A DNA stretch of 64,000 bases from Ignavibacteria bacterium (GTDB lineage Bacteria > Bacteroidota > Ignavibacteria > Ignavibacteriales > SURF-24), in contig JAAXKN010000002.1 in the NCBI GenBank assembly GCA_025612375.1, positions 124,001 through 188,000 on the forward strand, written 5' to 3'. A program made the translations under genes and the position numbers. Below, piece after piece: positions 11,342 to 19,320 of the stretch. Below the pieces are notes generated by a model, which searched no databases, was not told the DNA's origin, and was given only the letters and a program-made list of their open reading frames with translations. How positions within the stretch are numbered: the first letter of the stretch is position 1; the number at the start of each line of letters is the position of its first letter.

Positions 11342-11809
11342 ATGCCTGAAGCATATTACAAATCCCCTTTCGGATGGCTTAAGCTTAAGGCCGGTGATGA
11401 GGCTCTTAATGCAATTGAGTTCATAGAGGGAGGCGGGTATACTTCAGGCAGTGACCATCCGGTCTTAAAGGAAACCCTACGGCAGCTTGATGAATATTTT
11501 AAGTCTGAAAGGAAAACTTTTGATCTAAAACTTGAGCCTGAAGGCACGCCTTTTCAGAAGAGGGTCTGGAATGAGCTCCTTAAAATTCCTTTCGGCAGCA
11601 CAATAACGTATCTTGAACTTGCCCGGCGCCTGGGTGATGAAAAAGTTATACGGGCAGCCGGTACGGCAAACGGGAGAAATCCCATTCCGGTTGTTATCCC
11701 CTGCCACCGTGTAATCGGCAGCAGCGGCAAGCTGGTCGGCTATGCGGGCGGGCTTCAAATAAAAGAGTGGCTCCTCAGGCACGAAGGGAGTTTTATGGAA
11801 TTATTCTGA
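11342..11809 (+). CDS. ogt: Methylated-DNA-protein cysteine methyltransferase
   Basis: A 155-residue suicide repair protein that takes methyl groups from O6-methylguanine onto its own cysteine. The active-site motif IPCHRVIG carries the acceptor C121. Upstream are the DNA-binding helix region (GTPFQKRVWNELLKIPFGSTITY) and the recognition helix segment with RAAGTANGRNP. The length fits the Ogt form without the Ada N-terminal domain. It lies 10 bases after serA. Confidence 0.95.
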   Translation: MPEAYYKSPFGWLKLKAGDEALNAIEFIEGGGYTSGSDHPVLKETLRQLDEYFKSERKTFDLKLEPEGTPFQKRVWNELLKIPFGSTITYLELARRLGDEKVIRAAGTANGRNPIPVVIPCHRVIGSSGKLVGYAGGLQIKEWLLRHEGSFMELF

Positions 11810-11887: not shown

Positions 11888-12163
11888 CTAATAATCCCTT
11901 CTTCTGTAGTATCTTCTTCCGCCGGGCGACATATCGATAAGGAGTGCTATTACAAGACCGATTATGGGAACCGTGCCCCAGGAATTATCGAAGAAGTGAA
12001 AGACCACGCTGTACCACAGAAGTGTTACAGGAAGGAAAATAAAACCCAGAATGGGCCAGAGTAAGGTATGAAACATGCCGTTAAACCAGTTTGTTAAAAA
12101 CCACAAGAGGGCTATGGAAACTCTTGGTATGAGGACTGCAAAGATCAGTATTAAGTAGATCAT
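11888..12163 (-). CDS. Small hypothetical membrane protein
   Basis: A 91-residue protein with about three hydrophobic segments (MIYLILIFAVLIPRVSIALL; LLWPILGFIFLPVTLLWYSV; VPIIGLVIALLID) and a basic tail ending RRYYRRRDY. I do not recognise a named family. The start is placed at 12163 because aaggaag lies seven bases upstream on the minus strand; the longer frame to 12265 would add 34 polar residues with no signal. It points away from the histidine operon, so the region 12164-12300 holds divergent control sequences. Confidence 0.7.
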   Translation of the reverse strand: MIYLILIFAVLIPRVSIALLWFLTNWFNGMFHTLLWPILGFIFLPVTLLWYSVVFHFFDNSWGTVPIIGLVIALLIDMSPGGRRYYRRRDY

Positions 12164-12296
12164 ATCTTTCTTCCTTATGGCTCTTTCATAATAATCTATA
12201 ATAATATTAAGTAATAATAAAACTTTAAATTCATGCAAAAAATTGCGGAAAAAACTTCCTTCCATGCAATTTATTTACATATGAAGCCAAAAATGC

Positions 12297-12328
12297 TTTG
12301 AAATACAGGATTAATTTTCATAGATTTG
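12297..12328 (+). promoter_or_regulatory. Promoter of the histidine operon (Bacteroidota type)
   Basis: TTTG at 12297-12300 and TAGATTTG at 12321-12328 are separated by 20 bases, matching the TTTG (-33) and TAnnTTTG (-7) pattern of Bacteroidota housekeeping promoters. Transcription would begin near 12333-12336, just before the leader peptide. Confidence 0.7.
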
Positions 12329-12360
12329 ATTTATCAGTTATGAAAAACATTAATTTTAAT

Positions 12361-12447
12361 ATGACCCATTCAACCGGCTGCCTTAAAGCGGCTTTACATC
12401 ATCATGCTCATCATCTTAACTGCATTGCCGGTGTCGGATTGTATTAA
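12361..12447 (+). CDS. hisL: Histidine operon leader peptide
   Basis: A short frame reading MTHSTGCLKAAL, then HHHAHH, then LNCIAGVGLY and stop: 28 residues with five His codons in a six-codon run (12397-12414) plus one near the start. A longer in-frame version from ATG 12340 (35 residues) is possible, but the predicted RNA start leaves it almost leaderless. The position between a promoter and a terminator directly before hisG, and the composition, mark it as the sensor of a His-tRNA-controlled attenuator. No clear ribosome binding site is visible, as is common in Bacteroidota. Confidence 0.85.
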   Translation: MTHSTGCLKAALHHHAHHLNCIAGVGLY

Positions 12448-12507
12448 ACTCTATAAAAAAGTTTGAATTTTAATAACCCCGACACACTTGCCGGGGTTTT
12501 TTGTTTT
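12373..12507 (+). promoter_or_regulatory. Histidine attenuator (alternative RNA structures)
   Basis: Three mutually exclusive pairings can be read. Region 1 ACCGGC (12373-12378) pairs with region 2 GCCGGT (12427-12432). Region 2 GTGTCGG (12431-12437) pairs with region 3 CCGACAC (12479-12485). Region 3 AACCCCG (12475-12481) pairs with CGGGGTT (12492-12498) to form the terminator. A ribosome stalled on the His codons frees region 2 to capture region 3 and prevents termination; one that reaches the stop at 12447 covers region 2 and allows it. Confidence 0.85.
12475..12507 (+). terminator. Attenuator terminator before hisG
   Basis: aaccccg/cggggtt stem with a ten-base loop and the tail ttttttgttttt. 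It ends 26 bases before the hisG start. Confidence 0.88.
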
Positions 12508-12532
12508 TAAAGAATAAGGATTAAAAATAATA

Positions 12533-13402
12533 ATGGAAAACGGGAACTTAAAGCTGGCTATTCAAAAGAAAGGAAGACTTTCTGAAAAATCGCTCGAACT
12601 GATGAAACTTTGCGGGCTGGATATAGAAAACTATTCTGACAGGCTTATCGTCTCTGCCAAGAACCACAAGCTGGATCTTTTATTCTTAAGGGATGATGAC
12701 ATACCTGAGTATGTTCAGGACGGCGTTGCGGATATTGGCATTGTAGGCGAGGATGTGGTTTATGAAAAACAGGCAAATATTACGGTAAGCGAAAAGCTGG
12801 GCTTCGGAAAATGCAAGCTCATGATTGCCGCACCGCAAAACGGGCTTCCCAAAACGCTCGAAGACATTAACGGCAAGACCATCGCAACCTCTTACCCCAA
12901 CATCTTAAAACTCTTCCTCAGCGCAAATAACCTCCAGGCTAAAATAATTGAAATCAGCGGATCTGTTGAAATTGCCCCCTCGCTCGGCGTGGCAGACCTT
13001 ATATGCGACATCGTCTCAACGGGCAACACGCTCATGATGAATAAGCTCGCGAAGTCGTTTAACGTTTTTGACTCGGAAGCAGTTTTAATTTCCAACAACG
13101 CCCTTAAGAAAAATGAGGAGAAGTATGCAATTCTTCAGGACCTGATAGGCAGAATGAGAAGCGTGCTCTCGGCAAAGAAATCGAAGTATCTTATGATGAA
13201 TATACCGAAGGATTCTCTTGAAAGGATTTCAGAAATTATTCCTTCGCTTAAAAGCCCCACTGTGCTTCACCTTGCAGACGAGGCTTCACTTGCCGTTCAT
13301 GCCGTAATTCCGGCAGACCGCTTCTGGAGCATTGTTAACGACCTTAAGGATGCAGGAGCAACGGGAATCCTTCTTCTGCCGATTGAAAATATGATATTCT
13401 GA
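12533..13402 (+). CDS. hisG: ATP phosphoribosyltransferase, long form
   Basis: First step of histidine synthesis: joins ATP and PRPP. It has 289 residues, so it is the long HisG with a C-terminal ACT-like regulatory domain (from about residue 215, KYLMMNIPKDSLERISEI to the end) that normally binds histidine for feedback inhibition and needs no HisZ. The catalytic part shows LAIQKKGRLSEKSLELMK, the GVADIGIVGEDVV motif and the PRPP loop DIVSTGNTLMMNKL. It is the first gene of an eight-gene operon under the attenuator. Confidence 0.96.
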   Translation: MENGNLKLAIQKKGRLSEKSLELMKLCGLDIENYSDRLIVSAKNHKLDLLFLRDDDIPEYVQDGVADIGIVGEDVVYEKQANITVSEKLGFGKCKLMIAAPQNGLPKTLEDINGKTIATSYPNILKLFLSANNLQAKIIEISGSVEIAPSLGVADLICDIVSTGNTLMMNKLAKSFNVFDSEAVLISNNALKKNEEKYAILQDLIGRMRSVLSAKKSKYLMMNIPKDSLERISEIIPSLKSPTVLHLADEASLAVHAVIPADRFWSIVNDLKDAGATGILLLPIENMIF

Positions 13403-13424
13403 AACTAAACGGATTGGACTAAAA

Positions 13425-14714
13425 ATGAAAATCTATAATTTCAGGAATTTAGACCCAAAGGAAAAAGAAAGCCTTTTAAGACGCCCGGCAATAGACTTAT
13501 CGAAGTCTTTTGAAGCCGTAAGGCCTATCTTAAGTGAGATAAAAACTATGGGTCTTGAGGCTGCACTTAAATATGCCGCGAAGTTTGACCATTTTTCGGG
13601 AGAGAACCTCCTGGTATCCAGGGCTGAGTTCGATGAGGCCGAGAAAAATCTGGATAGTGAGGTAAAGCGTGCAATAAAAAAAGCAGCCGACAACATCCAG
13701 AAATTCCACATCAAGCAGATGCCTAAGCCGTACGCGACTGAAACTATGGAAGGAATTTTCTGCTCAAGAGAATACAGGGCAATTGAAAATGTGGGGCTCT
13801 ATATCCCGGGCGGAAGCGCCGTACTGCCCTCAACAATGCTAATGCTTGGAATACCGGCACGCATTGCGGGCTGCAGAAGAATTGTTGCCGTCTCCCCTTC
13901 AAAAGATAACAGGGTTAACGATGCGCTTCTTTATGCGGCAAAGTACCTGGAGATAACCGAGTTCTATAAAATAGGAGGCTCTCAGGCAATAGGGCTTCTG
14001 GCTTACGGCGACAAGGAGTTTCCGAAGGTAAATAAAATATTCGGTCCCGGCAACCAGTATGTTACGGCGGCCAAGCTCCTGGTAAGCATAGACCTTGAGG
14101 GCTGCCCGATTGATATGCCCGCGGGTCCAAGCGAGGTGCTGGTAATTGCGGATGAGTCTTCGGAGCCGTCTTTTATAGCAGCGGATCTTCTGTCGCAGGC
14201 TGAGCACGGAAGTGACTCACAGGTGGTGCTTGTTACAACCTCGCAGAAGGTTTTGTCAGGCGTGCTTGAACAGCTGGAGCTCCAGCTGCAGCTTCTTCCA
14301 AGAAAAGACACGGCTATTAAGGCGCTTGAATCATCTTTTGCCCTTGTAACTGAAAACGTGGAGGATGCCTTTACTTTCAGCAACATGTACGCCCCTGAGC
14401 ATCTTATTCTCCACCTTGAAGAGCCGGAGCAGTATAAGGCGCTAGTAAATAATGCGGGCTCGGTTTTCTTAGGCGGATACTCCCCTGAAAGCGCGGGCGA
14501 CTATGCCTCAGGCACAAACCATTCACTCCCCACATACGGCTATGCAAAGTCTTTTGGAGGAGTTACGGTTGAAAGCTTTATGAAAACAATGACATTCCAA
14601 AAATTAACGCGTGAGGGCTTAAAGAGCATCTCGGGGGCAGTTGAAACCCTGGCCGAGACGGAATCTTTAAGAGCACACAAGAACGCTGTAACTATAAGGT
14701 TAAATCAATTATGA
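13425..14714 (+). CDS. hisD: Histidinol dehydrogenase
   Basis: Last two oxidations of the pathway, histidinol to histidine, with NAD and zinc. The 429 residues include the expected signatures: GLYIPGGSAVLPSTMLMLG, KIFGPGNQYVTAAK, the zinc-ligand segment SQAEHGSDSQVVLV (Gln and His), APEHLIL with the catalytic Glu-His pair, AGDYASGTNHSLPT (zinc-binding Asp), and the C-terminal RAHKNAV histidine. It lies 22 bases after hisG and overlaps hisC by four bases (ATGA). Confidence 0.97.
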   Translation: MKIYNFRNLDPKEKESLLRRPAIDLSKSFEAVRPILSEIKTMGLEAALKYAAKFDHFSGENLLVSRAEFDEAEKNLDSEVKRAIKKAADNIQKFHIKQMPKPYATETMEGIFCSREYRAIENVGLYIPGGSAVLPSTMLMLGIPARIAGCRRIVAVSPSKDNRVNDALLYAAKYLEITEFYKIGGSQAIGLLAYGDKEFPKVNKIFGPGNQYVTAAKLLVSIDLEGCPIDMPAGPSEVLVIADESSEPSFIAADLLSQAEHGSDSQVVLVTTSQKVLSGVLEQLELQLQLLPRKDTAIKALESSFALVTENVEDAFTFSNMYAPEHLILHLEEPEQYKALVNNAGSVFLGGYSPESAGDYASGTNHSLPTYGYAKSFGGVTVESFMKTMTFQKLTREGLKSISGAVETLAETESLRAHKNAVTIRLNQL

Positions 14715-15757
14715 TAGAAAAGTTAGCCAGAAAAAATATACTGAACCTGAAGCCGTATACTTCGGCAAGGGACATGTATTCAAAGGGAATACTCCTGGAT
14801 GCAAATGAAAACAGCCTGGGATCTACGGCTGAATACTACGAGGATCTTTATCTTAACCGCTACCCCGACCCTCACCAGGAGGACCTGAAAAAAGCGGCAG
14901 GAGAATACCTGGGCGTTGAGGGGAAAAACCTCTTCTTCGGCGTTGGCTCCGACGAGATTATAGACCTTATAATCAGGATCTTCTGCGAGCCGAAAGAAGA
15001 CTCGGTTATGATACTGGATCCCACATACGGCATGTACCAGGTGGCCTGCGACATAAATAACGTAAAGACAAAGTCAGTAAACCTGACCGAAGAGTTTCAG
15101 ATAGATTTTGAAGCCGTAAAAAAGAATTTCGATGAGACGGTTAAAGTTATTTTCCTCTGCTCGCCAAATAATCCGACGGGCAACCTGTTAAAGAAAAGTG
15201 ACGTCATAAAGCTTGCTGAGAGCTTCAATGCCATCATTGCTGTTGACGAAGCCTATGTTGATTTTGCAGGGGATAATTCATTTATTAAAGAGGTTAATAG
15301 CCATGAGAACCTGGTCATAATCAGAACCTTCTCCAAGGCGTGGGGACTTGCGGGCATAAGGCTCGGTTTCTGTGTGGCAAATGAAGAGGTAATTCAGCTC
15401 CTGTTCAAGGTTAAAGCCCCCTATAACGTCAGTTCACTTACAAGGCAGGCCGTGATCGGTGCTATTGGAAACTACGGGAAAAAAGACGAGTTTGTTCAAA
15501 AGCTCATCTCAGAAAGGGAGCGCGTTAAAAATGAGCTCATGAAAATTCCGGGCATATTAAAAGTCTATCCTTCAGACGCCAACTACCTTCTTTTTAAGTG
15601 CAGGGATGCAAAGCTCATTCAGAAGAAAATGGCAGACGAAGGGGTTATAATACGCGACAGGAGCTCCTACGAGATGCTTGAGGGATGCCTCAGGGTTTCA
15701 ATAGGTACAGAATATGAAAACAATAAATTTCTGGACATAATTAAAAAACTCTTATAA
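14711..15757 (+). CDS. hisC: Histidinol-phosphate aminotransferase
   Basis: PLP enzyme of fold type I that transaminates imidazole acetol phosphate with glutamate. Within 348 residues are LDANENSLG near the start, FGVGSDEIIDLIIR, SPNNPTGN, DEAYVDF, and the Schiff-base lysine K209 in RTFSKAWGLAGIRLG. It is translationally coupled to hisD by a four-base overlap. Confidence 0.96.
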   Translation: MIEKLARKNILNLKPYTSARDMYSKGILLDANENSLGSTAEYYEDLYLNRYPDPHQEDLKKAAGEYLGVEGKNLFFGVGSDEIIDLIIRIFCEPKEDSVMILDPTYGMYQVACDINNVKTKSVNLTEEFQIDFEAVKKNFDETVKVIFLCSPNNPTGNLLKKSDVIKLAESFNAIIAVDEAYVDFAGDNSFIKEVNSHENLVIIRTFSKAWGLAGIRLGFCVANEEVIQLLFKVKAPYNVSSLTRQAVIGAIGNYGKKDEFVQKLISERERVKNELMKIPGILKVYPSDANYLLFKCRDAKLIQKKMADEGVIIRDRSSYEMLEGCLRVSIGTEYENNKFLDIIKKLL

Positions 15758-15766
15758 ATAAATCCA

Positions 15767-16660
15767 ATGAATAAAGTTGTAATAGATAAACAATTTTTTG
15801 ATCTTACCTCTCCTCTTTCAGGGGGGCTTGTTACGGGCTTAAAAAAGCTGAGCCGCAAGGGCCTTCTTCTTGAAGTAAAGAACGGAAAAATCAGTGGCGC
15901 CCTGGAAAAGGTGCTTACGCTGGAGGCAATTAGTCTCGGCAAGGCTTCAGACGGAAGCACGGGGGATTTTTATATAACAGCCTCCGGGAGTTCAGAGCCC
16001 GGTGGCGGTATAATAGCCGTAAAAGAAGGGTCGAAGACGGACACTTTCGGCAAAGCAGCCCAACAGGTTATAAAAAGCCTGAGGCACTCCATAAAGACGA
16101 GGAAGACAAAAGAGACCGATATAAATGTTGAAGTTTCTTTAGACGGTGAGGGCATTTCTGAAATCTCAACCGGCGTCGGGTTTTTTGACCATATGCTAGA
16201 GCAGATTTCAAAGCATGCCAACATAGACCTCAAGGTTCAGGTTAAAGGGGATCTTTTTGTGGATGAACACCATACGGTTGAGGATACCGGCATAACGCTG
16301 GGCCAGGCGATAAGCGAAGCCCTGGGAGACAAACTCGGCATCAAGCGCTACGGGTTTTTCCTCCCCATGGATGAATCCAGTGCAAAATGCGCAATTGACT
16401 TAGGGGGCAGGACGTACCTCAACTTCAAGTGCAAATTCAAAAGAGAGAAAGTAGGCGACTTCCCCGTTGAGCTGACAGAGGAATTTTTCCGCGGACTCTC
16501 CTCCGGCCTCAAGGCAAACGTATTCCTGAGGGCCAAGGGGAAAAACGACCACCATAAGATTGAAGCCATGTTTAAGGCTTTTGCAAAAGCCTTAAATGAG
16601 GCCCTGAGGATGGATGAAAGAAATGAAGATAAATTACCATCAACAAAAGGAGTTTTATGA
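15767..16660 (+). CDS. hisB: Imidazoleglycerol-phosphate dehydratase with degenerate N-terminal extension
   Basis: Dehydrates imidazole glycerol phosphate; manganese-dependent. Residues from about 108 to 297 are a full IGPD domain: STGVGFFDHMLEQISKHA, the metal-binding DEHHTVEDTG (H168, H169, E172), the second motif KNDHHKIEAMFKAF (H262, H263, E266), and the terminal PSTKGVL. The first 107 residues are extra. They begin VVIDKQFFDLTSPLSGGL and LKKLSRKGLLLEV, which line up loosely with the start of the HAD histidinol-phosphatase domain of bifunctional E. coli HisB, but the catalytic DxD, the TNQ segment and the CxC zinc loop are absent and the region is far shorter. I infer a decayed phosphatase domain. 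It overlaps hisH by four bases. Confidence 0.93.
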   Translation: MNKVVIDKQFFDLTSPLSGGLVTGLKKLSRKGLLLEVKNGKISGALEKVLTLEAISLGKASDGSTGDFYITASGSSEPGGGIIAVKEGSKTDTFGKAAQQVIKSLRHSIKTRKTKETDINVEVSLDGEGISEISTGVGFFDHMLEQISKHANIDLKVQVKGDLFVDEHHTVEDTGITLGQAISEALGDKLGIKRYGFFLPMDESSAKCAIDLGGRTYLNFKCKFKREKVGDFPVELTEEFFRGLSSGLKANVFLRAKGKNDHHKIEAMFKAFAKALNEALRMDERNEDKLPSTKGVL

Positions 16661-17241
16661 TAGCTCTTATTGACTATGACGCCGGAAATACCGCCTCGGT
16701 AGCCAACGCCCTGGAGAAGCTGGGGCACGAGTTTGTGCTAACCAACAAGGAGGCGGATATCTGCAGGGCGGATAAGGTTATATTCCCGGGGGTCGGAGAG
16801 GCATCATTTGCAATTAAGCAGCTTCACCGCTATAACTTGATTAATCTCTTAAGAATAGTTAAAAAGCCCCTTCTTGGCATATGTCTTGGGATGCAGCTCT
16901 TGAGTGAATATTCAACAGAAGGAAATATCCCGTGCTTGGGCGTTGTGCCGGGGAGGGTTGAGAAGTTCGATCCTGCAGAGGTTAACGTTCCGCATATGGG
17001 CTGGAATGAAGTTTTCCAGAAGAAGGAGAGCAAACTGTTTAAGGATATTAAAGACGGGGAGTTTTTCTACTTCGCAAATTCCTATTACCTGCCCGCGGGT
17101 GAATTTACAACCGCCGTGGCAAATCACGGCATCGATTTTACGGCAGCGTTGGAAAAAGATAATTATTACGGGATCCAGTTTCACCCGGAAAAGTCGGGCG
17201 AAGCGGGTCTTAAACTATTAAATAACTTTCTTGAAATATGA
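16657..17241 (+). CDS. hisH: Imidazole glycerol phosphate synthase, glutaminase subunit
   Basis: Class I glutamine amidotransferase that feeds ammonia to HisF. The triad is complete: C76 in GICLGMQLL, H176 and E178 in QFHPEKSGEAG; the oxyanion strand reads FPGVGEA. At 194 residues the length is normal. It overlaps hisB and hisA by four bases each, consistent with tight coupling. Confidence 0.96.
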   Translation: MIALIDYDAGNTASVANALEKLGHEFVLTNKEADICRADKVIFPGVGEASFAIKQLHRYNLINLLRIVKKPLLGICLGMQLLSEYSTEGNIPCLGVVPGRVEKFDPAEVNVPHMGWNEVFQKKESKLFKDIKDGEFFYFANSYYLPAGEFTTAVANHGIDFTAALEKDNYYGIQFHPEKSGEAGLKLLNNFLEI

Positions 17242-17954
17242 TTGTAATACCAGCAATAGATTTATATCAGAATAAAATTGTAAGACTTAAAGAAGGGGAT
17301 TTTAGTAAGGTCACCTTCTACGAAAACAGCCCGCTCGAGCAGGCAAGGATTTTTGAAGAGAGCGGATTCTCCTGGCTCCACATGGTGGATCTGGAGGGCT
17401 CCAGGACGGGCAGCGTCTCGGTGCTTGAGACTGTAAGGGAGATAAAAGCCAAGACAGGACTTAAGTTGGAGTTTGGCGGGGGCGTAAGGGATGAGGCTTC
17501 AGTGGCCAAAATCTTTTCCTCAGGCGCCGACCGTGTAATAATCGGGTCTTTATCGGTAGAAAATAAAAAGGAATTTGAAGCTATAGTTGAAAAGTACGGA
17601 GCAGAAAAGGTAGTGGTTGCAGCCGACGTTAAAGACGGCATGATTGCCGTCAGAGGGTGGACGGAGAAGACCGCGATGTCATTAAAAGACCATATTACGT
17701 ACTGCATGGGCCGGGGTGTGGATACTTTCCTTTGTACCGATATTTCGCGCGACGGAATGCTCTCGGGCACAAACATAAAACTCTACCAGGATATTATTAG
17801 TGAATTTCCGGGCATTAAGCTGATTGCCTCGGGAGGCATTAAGGATATTGAGGACGTCCGGAAAGTGGCGGAACTTAATGCTTACGCGGTTGTAGTAGGC
17901 AAGGCAATTTATGAAAACAGGATCAGCTTAAAGGAGCTTTCAGAAGTTGGTTAG
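17238..17954 (+). CDS. hisA: ProFAR isomerase
   Basis: TIM-barrel enzyme performing the Amadori rearrangement of ProFAR. The two catalytic aspartates are D8 ([14 protein letters not shown]) and D130 (VAADVKDG); the phosphate-binding loops GGGVRD and ASGGIKD are present. With 238 residues it matches the family. Its 3' end overlaps hisF by eight bases. Confidence 0.96.
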
Positions 17955-18702
17955 CAAAAGAATTATTCCGTGCCTGGACGTTAAAGACGGGAAAGTGGTT
18001 AAAGGGACGAACTTTGTAAATTTAATTGATGCCGGGGATGCAGTCAGTCTTGCAGAACGCTATAGCAGTGAAGGCGCAGATGAACTTGTATTCCTTGATA
18101 TAACGGCTTCGGCCGAGAAAAGAAAAACACTCCTGGGGCTGGTTGAAAAGGTGGCAAAGGCTATCCGGATCCCTTTTACAGTGGGCGGCGGCATTTCGGA
18201 GCTGAAGGACATTGAAAGCCTTCTTAAGGCCGGTGCCGACAAGGTATCGCTTAACTCATCAATTGTCCGCAATCCTGAGCTTATTACACAGGCCTCCAGG
18301 CGCTTCGGCAGCCAGGCCATAGTAGCTGCAATTGACGTAAAGCGGGCGGGCGGCCTCTATAAGGTTTATGTAAAAGGAGGACGCGAGGAAACTGAGCTCG
18401 AAGGCCTCAGCTGGTGCAAAAAGGCGGCTGAACTCGGGGCGGGTGAAATACTCCTTACCTCGATGGATAAAGACGGCACAAAGGATGGCTACGACGTGGA
18501 ATTCCTCCGGGAAATTACCTCGTCTGTAACAATTCCTGTTATCGCCTCGGGCGGAGCCGGGAAAAAAGAGGATTTCCTGGAGGCTTTCCTTAAGGCCAGG
18601 GTGGATGCCTGCCTGGCAGCAAGCCTGTTCCACTTCAGCATTCTGGAAATAAAAGAATTAAAAAAGTATCTAAAGGAAAATAATATAAAAGTAAGGCTTT
18701 AA
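17947..18702 (+). CDS. hisF: Imidazole glycerol phosphate synthase, cyclase subunit
   Basis: Cyclase that makes imidazole glycerol phosphate and AICAR from PRFAR and ammonia supplied by HisH. Catalytic D11 ([13 protein letters not shown]) and D130 (AAIDVKR) are present, as are FTVGGGI and [11 protein letters not shown]. Translation starts at a TTG inside the end of hisA; aaggag lies ten bases upstream and the family N-terminus [11 protein letters not shown] is reproduced exactly. Confidence 0.96.
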
Positions 18703-18711
18703 GGTTAAAAA

Positions 18712-19320
18712 ATGATTGATATAAGCAAACTGGACTTTAATAAAATGGGCGGGCTTATACCCGCAGTTGTAACAGACAATTCAAACGGCGAAGTCCTTAT
18801 GCTGGGCTTCATGAATAAGGAAGCCCTGGATAAAACCATGGAGTCGGGGCTTGTTACTTTCTTCAGCCGCTCAAAAGGGAGGCTCTGGACAAAAGGAGAA
18901 ACTTCAGGCAATTATCTTAAATTAGTGAGTGTAGCGCAGGACTGTGATAACGATTCACTTCTGATTAAAGCCAATCCTGAAGGCAACACCTGCCACACTG
19001 GGGGCTACTCGTGCTTTTTCCCGGAAAAGCCAGGTTCAATTAACTTCCTAAACGAGCTTTTCTCACTTATTAAGGACAGGAAAGAAAAGCTTCCGGAAGG
19101 CTCATACACAACAAAGCTCTTTCAAAGAGGGGCCAACAGAATAATACAGAAGGTTGGTGAAGAGGCCATTGAAACCGTAATTGCAGCCAAAAACAGGGAT
19201 AAAAACGAGCTGATAAATGAGACCTCGGACCTCATCTATCATATGTTTGTAATGCTCGCTGAGCAGGAAATTGAATTTACGGACATAGTAAAAAACCTTG
19301 AAATGCGCCATTCCAAGTAA
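18712..19320 (+). CDS. hisIE: Bifunctional phosphoribosyl-AMP cyclohydrolase / phosphoribosyl-ATP pyrophosphatase
   Basis: Second and third pathway steps fused in 202 residues. The HisI half (1-105) has SRSKGRLWTKGETSGN and the zinc cysteines in QDCDNDSL and NTCHTGGYSCF. The HisE half (from about 113) has SYTTKLFQRGANRI and QKVGEEAIETVIAAKN. It closes the operon, so all steps except a recognisable histidinol-phosphate phosphatase are encoded here. Confidence 0.96.
   Translation: MIDISKLDFNKMGGLIPAVVTDNSNGEVLMLGFMNKEALDKTMESGLVTFFSRSKGRLWTKGETSGNYLKLVSVAQDCDNDSLLIKANPEGNTCHTGGYSCFFPEKPGSINFLNELFSLIKDRKEKLPEGSYTTKLFQRGANRIIQKVGEEAIETVIAAKNRDKNELINETSDLIYHMFVMLAEQEIEFTDIVKNLEMRHSK

What the first reader, a model, noticed from the sequence alone, without database searches (positions are those of the whole stretch)
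12297..12532. Complete histidine attenuator with readable alternative structures
Promoter, a leader peptide with HHHAHH, region 1 (12373-12378), region 2 (12427-12437), region 3 (12475-12485) and a terminator (12475-12507) are all present in the order used by the enteric his operon. Region 2 is covered by a ribosome at the leader stop and free when it stalls at the His codons. Ribosome-mediated his attenuation is best described in Proteobacteria; finding it with a Bacteroidota-type promoter and without an obvious ribosome binding site is notable.
Basis: partly seen in the sequence, partly recalled or inferred. Interest (0 to 1): 0.8.

Follow-up and report, generated by a model that had tools for sequence, protein, structure and literature searches.

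The report
Histidine operon leader-peptide transcription attenuator
Just before its histidine-making genes, this Ignavibacteria bacterium carries a tiny histidine-rich reading frame and two competing RNA hairpins that should switch the genes on only when histidine runs short; the switch is of a classic known kind, but it turns out to be spread across a phylum for which it is hardly described.

Summary
In front of hisG lie a Bacteroidota-type promoter (12297-12328), a 35-codon leader ORF MKNINFNMTHSTGCLKAALHHHAHHLNCIAGVGLY (12340-12447), an antiterminator strand (12431-12437) and an intrinsic terminator (12475-12510). The operon is hisG-D-C-B-H-A-F-IE. The window comes from an Ignavibacteriales-related genome. 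In its order 49 of 50 distinct hisG upstream regions have a His-run leader ORF and 46 also a terminator. Across 166 loci a His-rich leader occurs in 133 on the coding strand, 0 on the other, and in 0.3% of shuffles. Antiterminator (2:3) and terminator (3:4) pairings covary, also in other families with unrelated terminator sequences. Region 1:2 pairing is real in the window but not a conserved part. Best explanation: classical ribosome-mediated attenuation of the his operon by His-tRNA charging. It scores far below Rfam's His_leader cut-off (23.7 vs 49 bits). New member of a known kind. The news is the phylum-wide spread and the same design in front of trpE and thrA in this genome; no response to histidine has been measured.

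The parts
12297..12328 (+). Bacteroidota-type (sigma-ABfr-like) promoter TTTG-N20-TAGATTTG
   Evidence: Sequence; 37 of 46 relatives score 9 or 10 of 10 upstream of the leader against 6% of shuffles; consensus TTTG/TAnnTTTG from PMC7366714
12340..12447 (+). Leader peptide ORF MKNINFNMTHSTGCLKAALHHHAHHLNCIAGVGLY, starting 12 nt after the -7 box, so nearly leaderless; no obvious ribosome binding site
   Evidence: His-run ORF in 49 of 50 distinct order-level relatives
12397..12414 (+). Regulatory codons: His-His-His-Ala-His-His
   Evidence: Only match of CAYCAYCAYNNNCAYCAY in the whole genome; His clusters conserved
12373..12378 (+). Region 1 (ACCGGC), complementary to 12427-12432; local, not conserved across the order
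12427..12437 (+). Region 2, antiterminator 5' strand (core GTGTCGG 12431-12437), at the 3' end of the leader ORF just before its stop codon
12475..12485 (+). Region 3: 5' arm of the terminator and 3' strand of the antiterminator (CCGACAC 12479-12485)
12475..12510 (+). Intrinsic terminator: stem 12475-12498, T-rich tract to about 12510
   Evidence: 3:4 covariation
12533..13402 (+). hisG, first gene of the regulated operon
   Evidence: TIGR00070 200 bits and TIGR03455
13425..19320 (+). Rest of the operon: hisD, hisC, hisB, hisH, hisA, hisF, hisIE
   Evidence: NCBIfam hits above curated cut-offs

Best explanation
This is a classical ribosome-mediated transcription attenuator of the his operon. 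RNA polymerase starts at the TTTG/TAnnTTTG promoter and a ribosome begins the leader ORF almost at the 5' end. With enough charged His-tRNA the ribosome runs to the stop codon at 12445, covers region 2, region 3 pairs with region 4, and transcription ends near 12505-12510. When His-tRNA is short the ribosome waits on the five His codons; region 2, which begins 13-17 nt after the last His codon, stays free, pairs with region 3 while region 4 is still unmade, and polymerase reads through into hisGDCBHAFIE. Shown here: the parts, their conservation, their spacing and the covariation of both helices. Inferred: ribosome stalling, termination and the response to histidine.
For: The operon holds the his pathway genes hisG to hisIE. 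Leader ORF: 49 of 50 distinct order-level relatives; 133 of 166 loci against 0 on the other strand and 0.3% of shuffles. Antiterminator: mean own duplex -13.2 kcal/mol, swapped between species -10.7, shuffled -6.4 (sd 0.34); 0 of 20000 permutations reach the own value. Compensatory changes: 40 cells with both sides changed against 19.9 in shuffles for 2:3, 30 against 18.9 for 3:4. In 21 further loci from other families, with quite different terminator sequences, own -15.7 against swapped -10.5, 0 of 20000. Geometry: region 2 starts a median of 13 nt after the last His codon and ends a median of 3 nt before the stop codon. Folding with a ribosome mask: stalled on any His codon and RNA ending at 12489, P(2:3) is at least 0.99; ribosome on the stop codon, P(3:4) is 1.00.
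Against: No expression data. At equilibrium with region 4 made, the terminator wins even with a stalled ribosome (P(3:4) 0.67-0.91), so the antiterminator has to win kinetically. In the window alone the 2:3 duplex is only moderately unlikely (23 of 5000 dinucleotide shuffles; 66 of 3000 random 60-mers). Three order-level relatives with a leader lack a strong intrinsic terminator (L006, L040, L042), and 62 of the 83 leader-bearing loci of other families lack one.
Confidence: 0.93

Rival explanations
1. The leader regulates translation of hisG (or Rho access), not intrinsic termination: leader translation controls a hairpin that hides the hisG start.
For: Many Bacteroidota loci, mainly Sphingobacteriaceae, have the His leader but no intrinsic terminator, so some relatives must use another output.
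Against: In the window and in 46 of 50 distinct order-level sequences a terminator with T tract lies between leader and hisG; here its T tract ends about 23 nt before the hisG start, and its 3' arm covaries with its 5' arm.
Confidence: 0.04
2. A riboswitch, T-box or RNA-binding protein senses histidine or tRNA directly; the His codons are incidental.
For: Only general: T-boxes and repressors control his genes in Firmicutes (PMC9413887).
Against: No Rfam family reaches its cut-off in the window, T-box included; the most conserved feature over the phylum is the run of His codons in an ORF, not an RNA sequence or fold.
Confidence: 0.015
3. The short ORF codes for a functional small His-rich (metal-binding) protein and the terminator is constitutive.
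For: The ORF is conserved and lies behind a conserved promoter.
Against: Outside the His run the peptides share almost nothing and vary widely in length; the 3' end of the ORF keeps complementarity to the terminator arm, which a protein would not need.
Confidence: 0.015

Closest known systems
his operon leader of enterobacteria (Rfam RF00514 His_leader)
   Same: His-codon-rich leader ORF upstream of hisG, alternative antiterminator and terminator, intrinsic terminator before hisG
   Different: Scores 23.7 bits against a gathering score of 49, and no order relative passes; different sequence; no conserved 1:2 hairpin; His run broken by Ala; sigma-ABfr-like promoter; leader ORF starts about 5 nt from the inferred transcript start
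Histidine attenuators predicted in Bacillota (B. cereus group, Peptostreptococcaceae, Erysipelotrichales; PMC9413887)
   Same: Found the same way: His-run leader peptide, terminator and antiterminator, no RF00514 match
   Different: Other phylum; sporadic there, usual here
Bacteroid-trp RNA (Rfam RF01692)
   Same: Proposed cis-regulatory RNA of Bacteroidetes; by its name and my own knowledge linked to trp genes (listed in PMC2864571)
   Different: Tryptophan; no match in 21 genomes of this order
Attenuators listed for Bacteroidetes/Chlorobi by Vitreschak et al. 2004 (FEMS Microbiol Lett 234:357)
   Same: From memory, its abstract mentions candidate attenuators in Bacteroidetes/Chlorobi in some cases
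   Different: The paper is not held, so which operons and genomes it covers could not be checked

Membership tests
Classical ribosome-mediated transcription attenuator | Short leader ORF with a run of codons for the amino acid made by the operon | tested here: met
   HHHAHH in front of hisGDCBHAFIE; 49 of 50 relatives. That it is translated is inferred
Classical ribosome-mediated transcription attenuator | Intrinsic terminator between leader ORF and first structural gene | tested here: met
   12475-12510; 46 of 50 relatives; 3:4 covariation
Classical ribosome-mediated transcription attenuator | Antiterminator that excludes the terminator and is covered by a ribosome at the stop codon but not by one at the regulatory codons | tested here: met
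   Swap test and covariation; spacing and masked folding
Classical ribosome-mediated transcription attenuator | Region 1:2 hairpin that pauses polymerase and protects the terminator without translation | tested here: inconclusive
   Present in the window (6 bp) and scattered relatives; weak over the set: own -7.7, swapped -6.9, shuffled -6.5
Classical ribosome-mediated transcription attenuator | Read-through responds to charging of the cognate tRNA | not testable with these tools
   Needs expression data
Rfam RF00514 His_leader | Score at or above the gathering threshold | tested here: not met
   23.7 bits against 49; 0 of 30 order genomes over the cut-off
T-box | T-box covariance model match upstream of the gene | tested here: not met
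   No Rfam match in the window at gathering scores

The most novel reading that the evidence does not exclude
Histidine attenuation is an ancestral and nearly general control of his operons throughout Bacteroidota sensu lato (Ignavibacteria to Flavobacteria), older than the terminators now used: the His leader peptide is kept while the terminator/antiterminator sequence has been replaced lineage by lineage, and in Sphingobacteriaceae and many other genomes by a different, unidentified output without an intrinsic terminator.
Probability: 0.5. Interest if true: 0.62.

Novelty: new member of a known kind. Interest (0 to 1): 0.48.

Why it matters
[quoted passage not shown] A His-leader attenuator that is usual in one order and common across a large phylum, with several unrelated terminator sequences, argues for independent or very old origins. 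It also implies translation close enough behind RNA polymerase in these bacteria for attenuation to work, although they mostly do not use Shine-Dalgarno starts (general knowledge). It offers a way to annotate his, trp and thr control in many genomes that Rfam's model misses.

Tried and rejected
One search read upstream regions of minus-strand loci from the wrong side, which made about a dozen relatives look leaderless; corrected. The scan did not list the terminator. Rfam: no gathering-level hit; the best sub-threshold hits were rnk_pseudo and His_leader, largely through the GC-rich terminator. RF00514 searches over relatives gave only weak scattered hits, so the Rfam model is no use as a test here. 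RF01692 (Bacteroid-trp) absent. One search stopped with an error and let terminators overlap the leader; one search replaces it. One search used coordinates off by one; one search replaces it. Thermodynamic z-scores of single sequences are weak (-0.65 to -2.1) and were not used as evidence. Considered that the terminator ends an upstream gene: rejected, the nearest upstream plus-strand gene (ogt) ends at 11809 and the ORF between (11888-12265) is on the minus strand. Literature searches for attenuation in Bacteroidetes or Ignavibacteria returned nothing direct.

Full report
What is there. At 12533-19320 is a compact his operon, hisG-hisD-hisC-hisB-hisH-hisA-hisF-hisIE. The 236 bases before hisG hold, in order: TTTG-N20-TAGATTTG (12297-12328), an ATG at 12340, the ORF MKNINFNMTHSTGCLKAALHHHAHHLNCIAGVGLY ending with TAA 12445-12447, and the hairpin AACCCCG-(10 nt)-CGGGGTT (12475-12498) followed by a T-rich tract.

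More than chance. The pattern CAYCAYCAYNNNCAYCAY occurs once in the genome. I took the 500 bases upstream of hisG from 166 loci: same family, same order, other families of the phylum, and named genomes (a few of the named ones are from other phyla). An ORF of 8-80 codons with at least 4 His in 8 codons occurs in 133 on the coding strand, in 0 on the opposite strand, and in 11 of 3320 dinucleotide shuffles. Some loci are the same or very close genomes, so the counts are not independent, but the contrast is far too large for that to matter. In the order itself 49 of 50 distinct upstream regions have a leader and 46 also a terminator, mostly of the CCCCGGC...GCCGGGG type. Examples are MKIRTHLHHHHIYSLR, MLLVFNHHHHHSILITESGVF, MNLTIHAHHTHHLNPYRGAGIL.

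Pairings. For 39 non-redundant order-level sequences the best duplex between the stretch after the last His codon and the terminator's 5' arm is -13.2 kcal/mol on average; exchanging arms between species gives -10.7, shuffling gives -6.4 (sd 0.34), and none of 20000 permutations reaches the own value. This test leaves the register free, so it is not biased by choosing the register. On an anchored alignment of 43 distinct sequences the 2:3 helix has 82% standard pairs, 40 cells changed on both sides against 19.9 in shuffles, and collapses when slid by one column; the 3:4 helix has 74%, 30 against 18.9. The register of region 2 in that alignment was chosen for pairing, so its percentage paired leans high; the swap test does not. 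In 21 loci of other families with unrelated terminators (AGGCTTACC..., CCCGTCTGAG..., ATCCTACCTG..., GGCATTCCGG...) the own duplex is -15.7 against -10.5 swapped, again 0 of 20000. So the antiterminator has been remade together with the terminator in each lineage.

Geometry and mechanism. Region 2 begins a median of 13 nt after the last His codon and ends a median of 3 nt before the stop codon. That is what ribosome control needs: a ribosome on any His codon leaves region 2 open, one on the stop codon covers it. Folding the window's RNA with a ribosome mask gives P(2:3) of 0.99-1.00 when the ribosome is on a His codon and the RNA ends at 12489, and P(3:4) of 1.00 with the ribosome on the stop codon. 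Once region 4 is made, equilibrium favours the terminator even with a stalled ribosome (0.67-0.91), so the switch must be kinetic, as is usual for this class (general knowledge). But over the order 1:2 pairing is barely above controls (own -7.7, swapped -6.9, p 0.011, shuffled -6.5), so region 1 is at best a local refinement.

Promoter and start. The TTTG/TAnnTTTG promoter, which is the consensus of the Bacteroidetes primary sigma factor (PMC7366714), is present upstream of the leader in most relatives (37 of 46 score at least 9 of 10; shuffles 6%). The leader ATG lies 11 nt after the -7 box here and similarly close in most relatives. The transcript start itself is inferred, about 12335. The leader is thus nearly leaderless, which would explain the missing ribosome binding site.

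Comparison with the known. It works like the enterobacterial his attenuator, but it is not a member of Rfam RF00514 by that family's own test (23.7 against 49 bits; none of 30 order genomes above cut-off). The literature at hand describes histidine attenuators in Proteobacteria and in some Bacillota (PMC9413887; PMC2965389) and proposes a gamma-proteobacterial origin (PMC3766115). Bacteroid-trp (RF01692) shows that a cis-regulatory element of this sort was already proposed for Bacteroidetes. From memory, the abstract of Vitreschak et al. 2004 mentions Bacteroidetes/Chlorobi candidates; it is not held, so priority cannot be settled. I therefore rate the element a new member of a known kind.

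The same genome uses the design elsewhere. In front of trpE is MKTQNRTYSFNLTKSSWGSWWRIIIYGDLVN with a terminator of -22.5 kcal/mol. In front of thrA is MNYPINTYSTAIMHTTMWMTPTPYTG with a terminator, and by inspection a near-perfect antiterminator CGGGCTAAAGTTGG/CCGACTTCAGCCCG; the leader is conserved in relatives, for example as MITLIMCTTTTTMTPSGG. In front of ilvD is an Ile/Val/Leu-rich leader without an intrinsic terminator. This supports attenuation as a general strategy in this lineage.

What remains open. Nothing here measures expression. Sixty-two leader-bearing loci outside the order, mainly Pedobacter, Mucilaginibacter and Sphingobacterium, lack an intrinsic terminator and must work otherwise.

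Noticed in passing
G000:C64 (L189, minus strand 1810-1530): Trp leader peptide MKTQNRTYSFNLTKSSWGSWWRIIIYGDLVN and a strong intrinsic terminator directly before trpE: a candidate trp attenuator not matched by Rfam Bacteroid-trp.
   Followed up: partly
G000:C2 upstream of 355665 (L193); relatives L196-L204: Thr/Ile/Met-rich leader MNYPINTYSTAIMHTTMWMTPTPYTG, terminator and near-perfect antiterminator before thrA (825-aa open frame); conserved in family and some order relatives.
   Followed up: partly
G000:C2 about 287750-288010 (L190): Leader ORF ending ISLEILLLGISIIIVVLGIIISILS before ilvD, no intrinsic terminator; AGGGATT / CAATCCCTAATC / GATCAGGGGTTG could form alternative hairpins near the ilvD start, perhaps translational control.
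   Followed up: partly
L113-L117, L119-L120, L122-L127, L129-L130, L132-L142 and similar Sphingobacteriaceae loci: Conserved His leader (HHLHLHHR...) whose His codons pair with the end of the ORF, followed by a conserved GTTTC-TACG-GAAAT or GTTTTG-TACTT-CAAAAC element but no ordinary intrinsic terminator; hisG often seems to start with GTG or TTG.
   Followed up: partly
15767-16660: HisB carries about 105 N-terminal residues before the imidazoleglycerol-phosphate dehydratase domain that NCBIfam models do not cover; possibly a decayed or divergent phosphatase-type domain.
   Followed up: no
17947-18702: hisF appears to start with TTG and overlaps the end of hisA by 8 nt.
   Followed up: no
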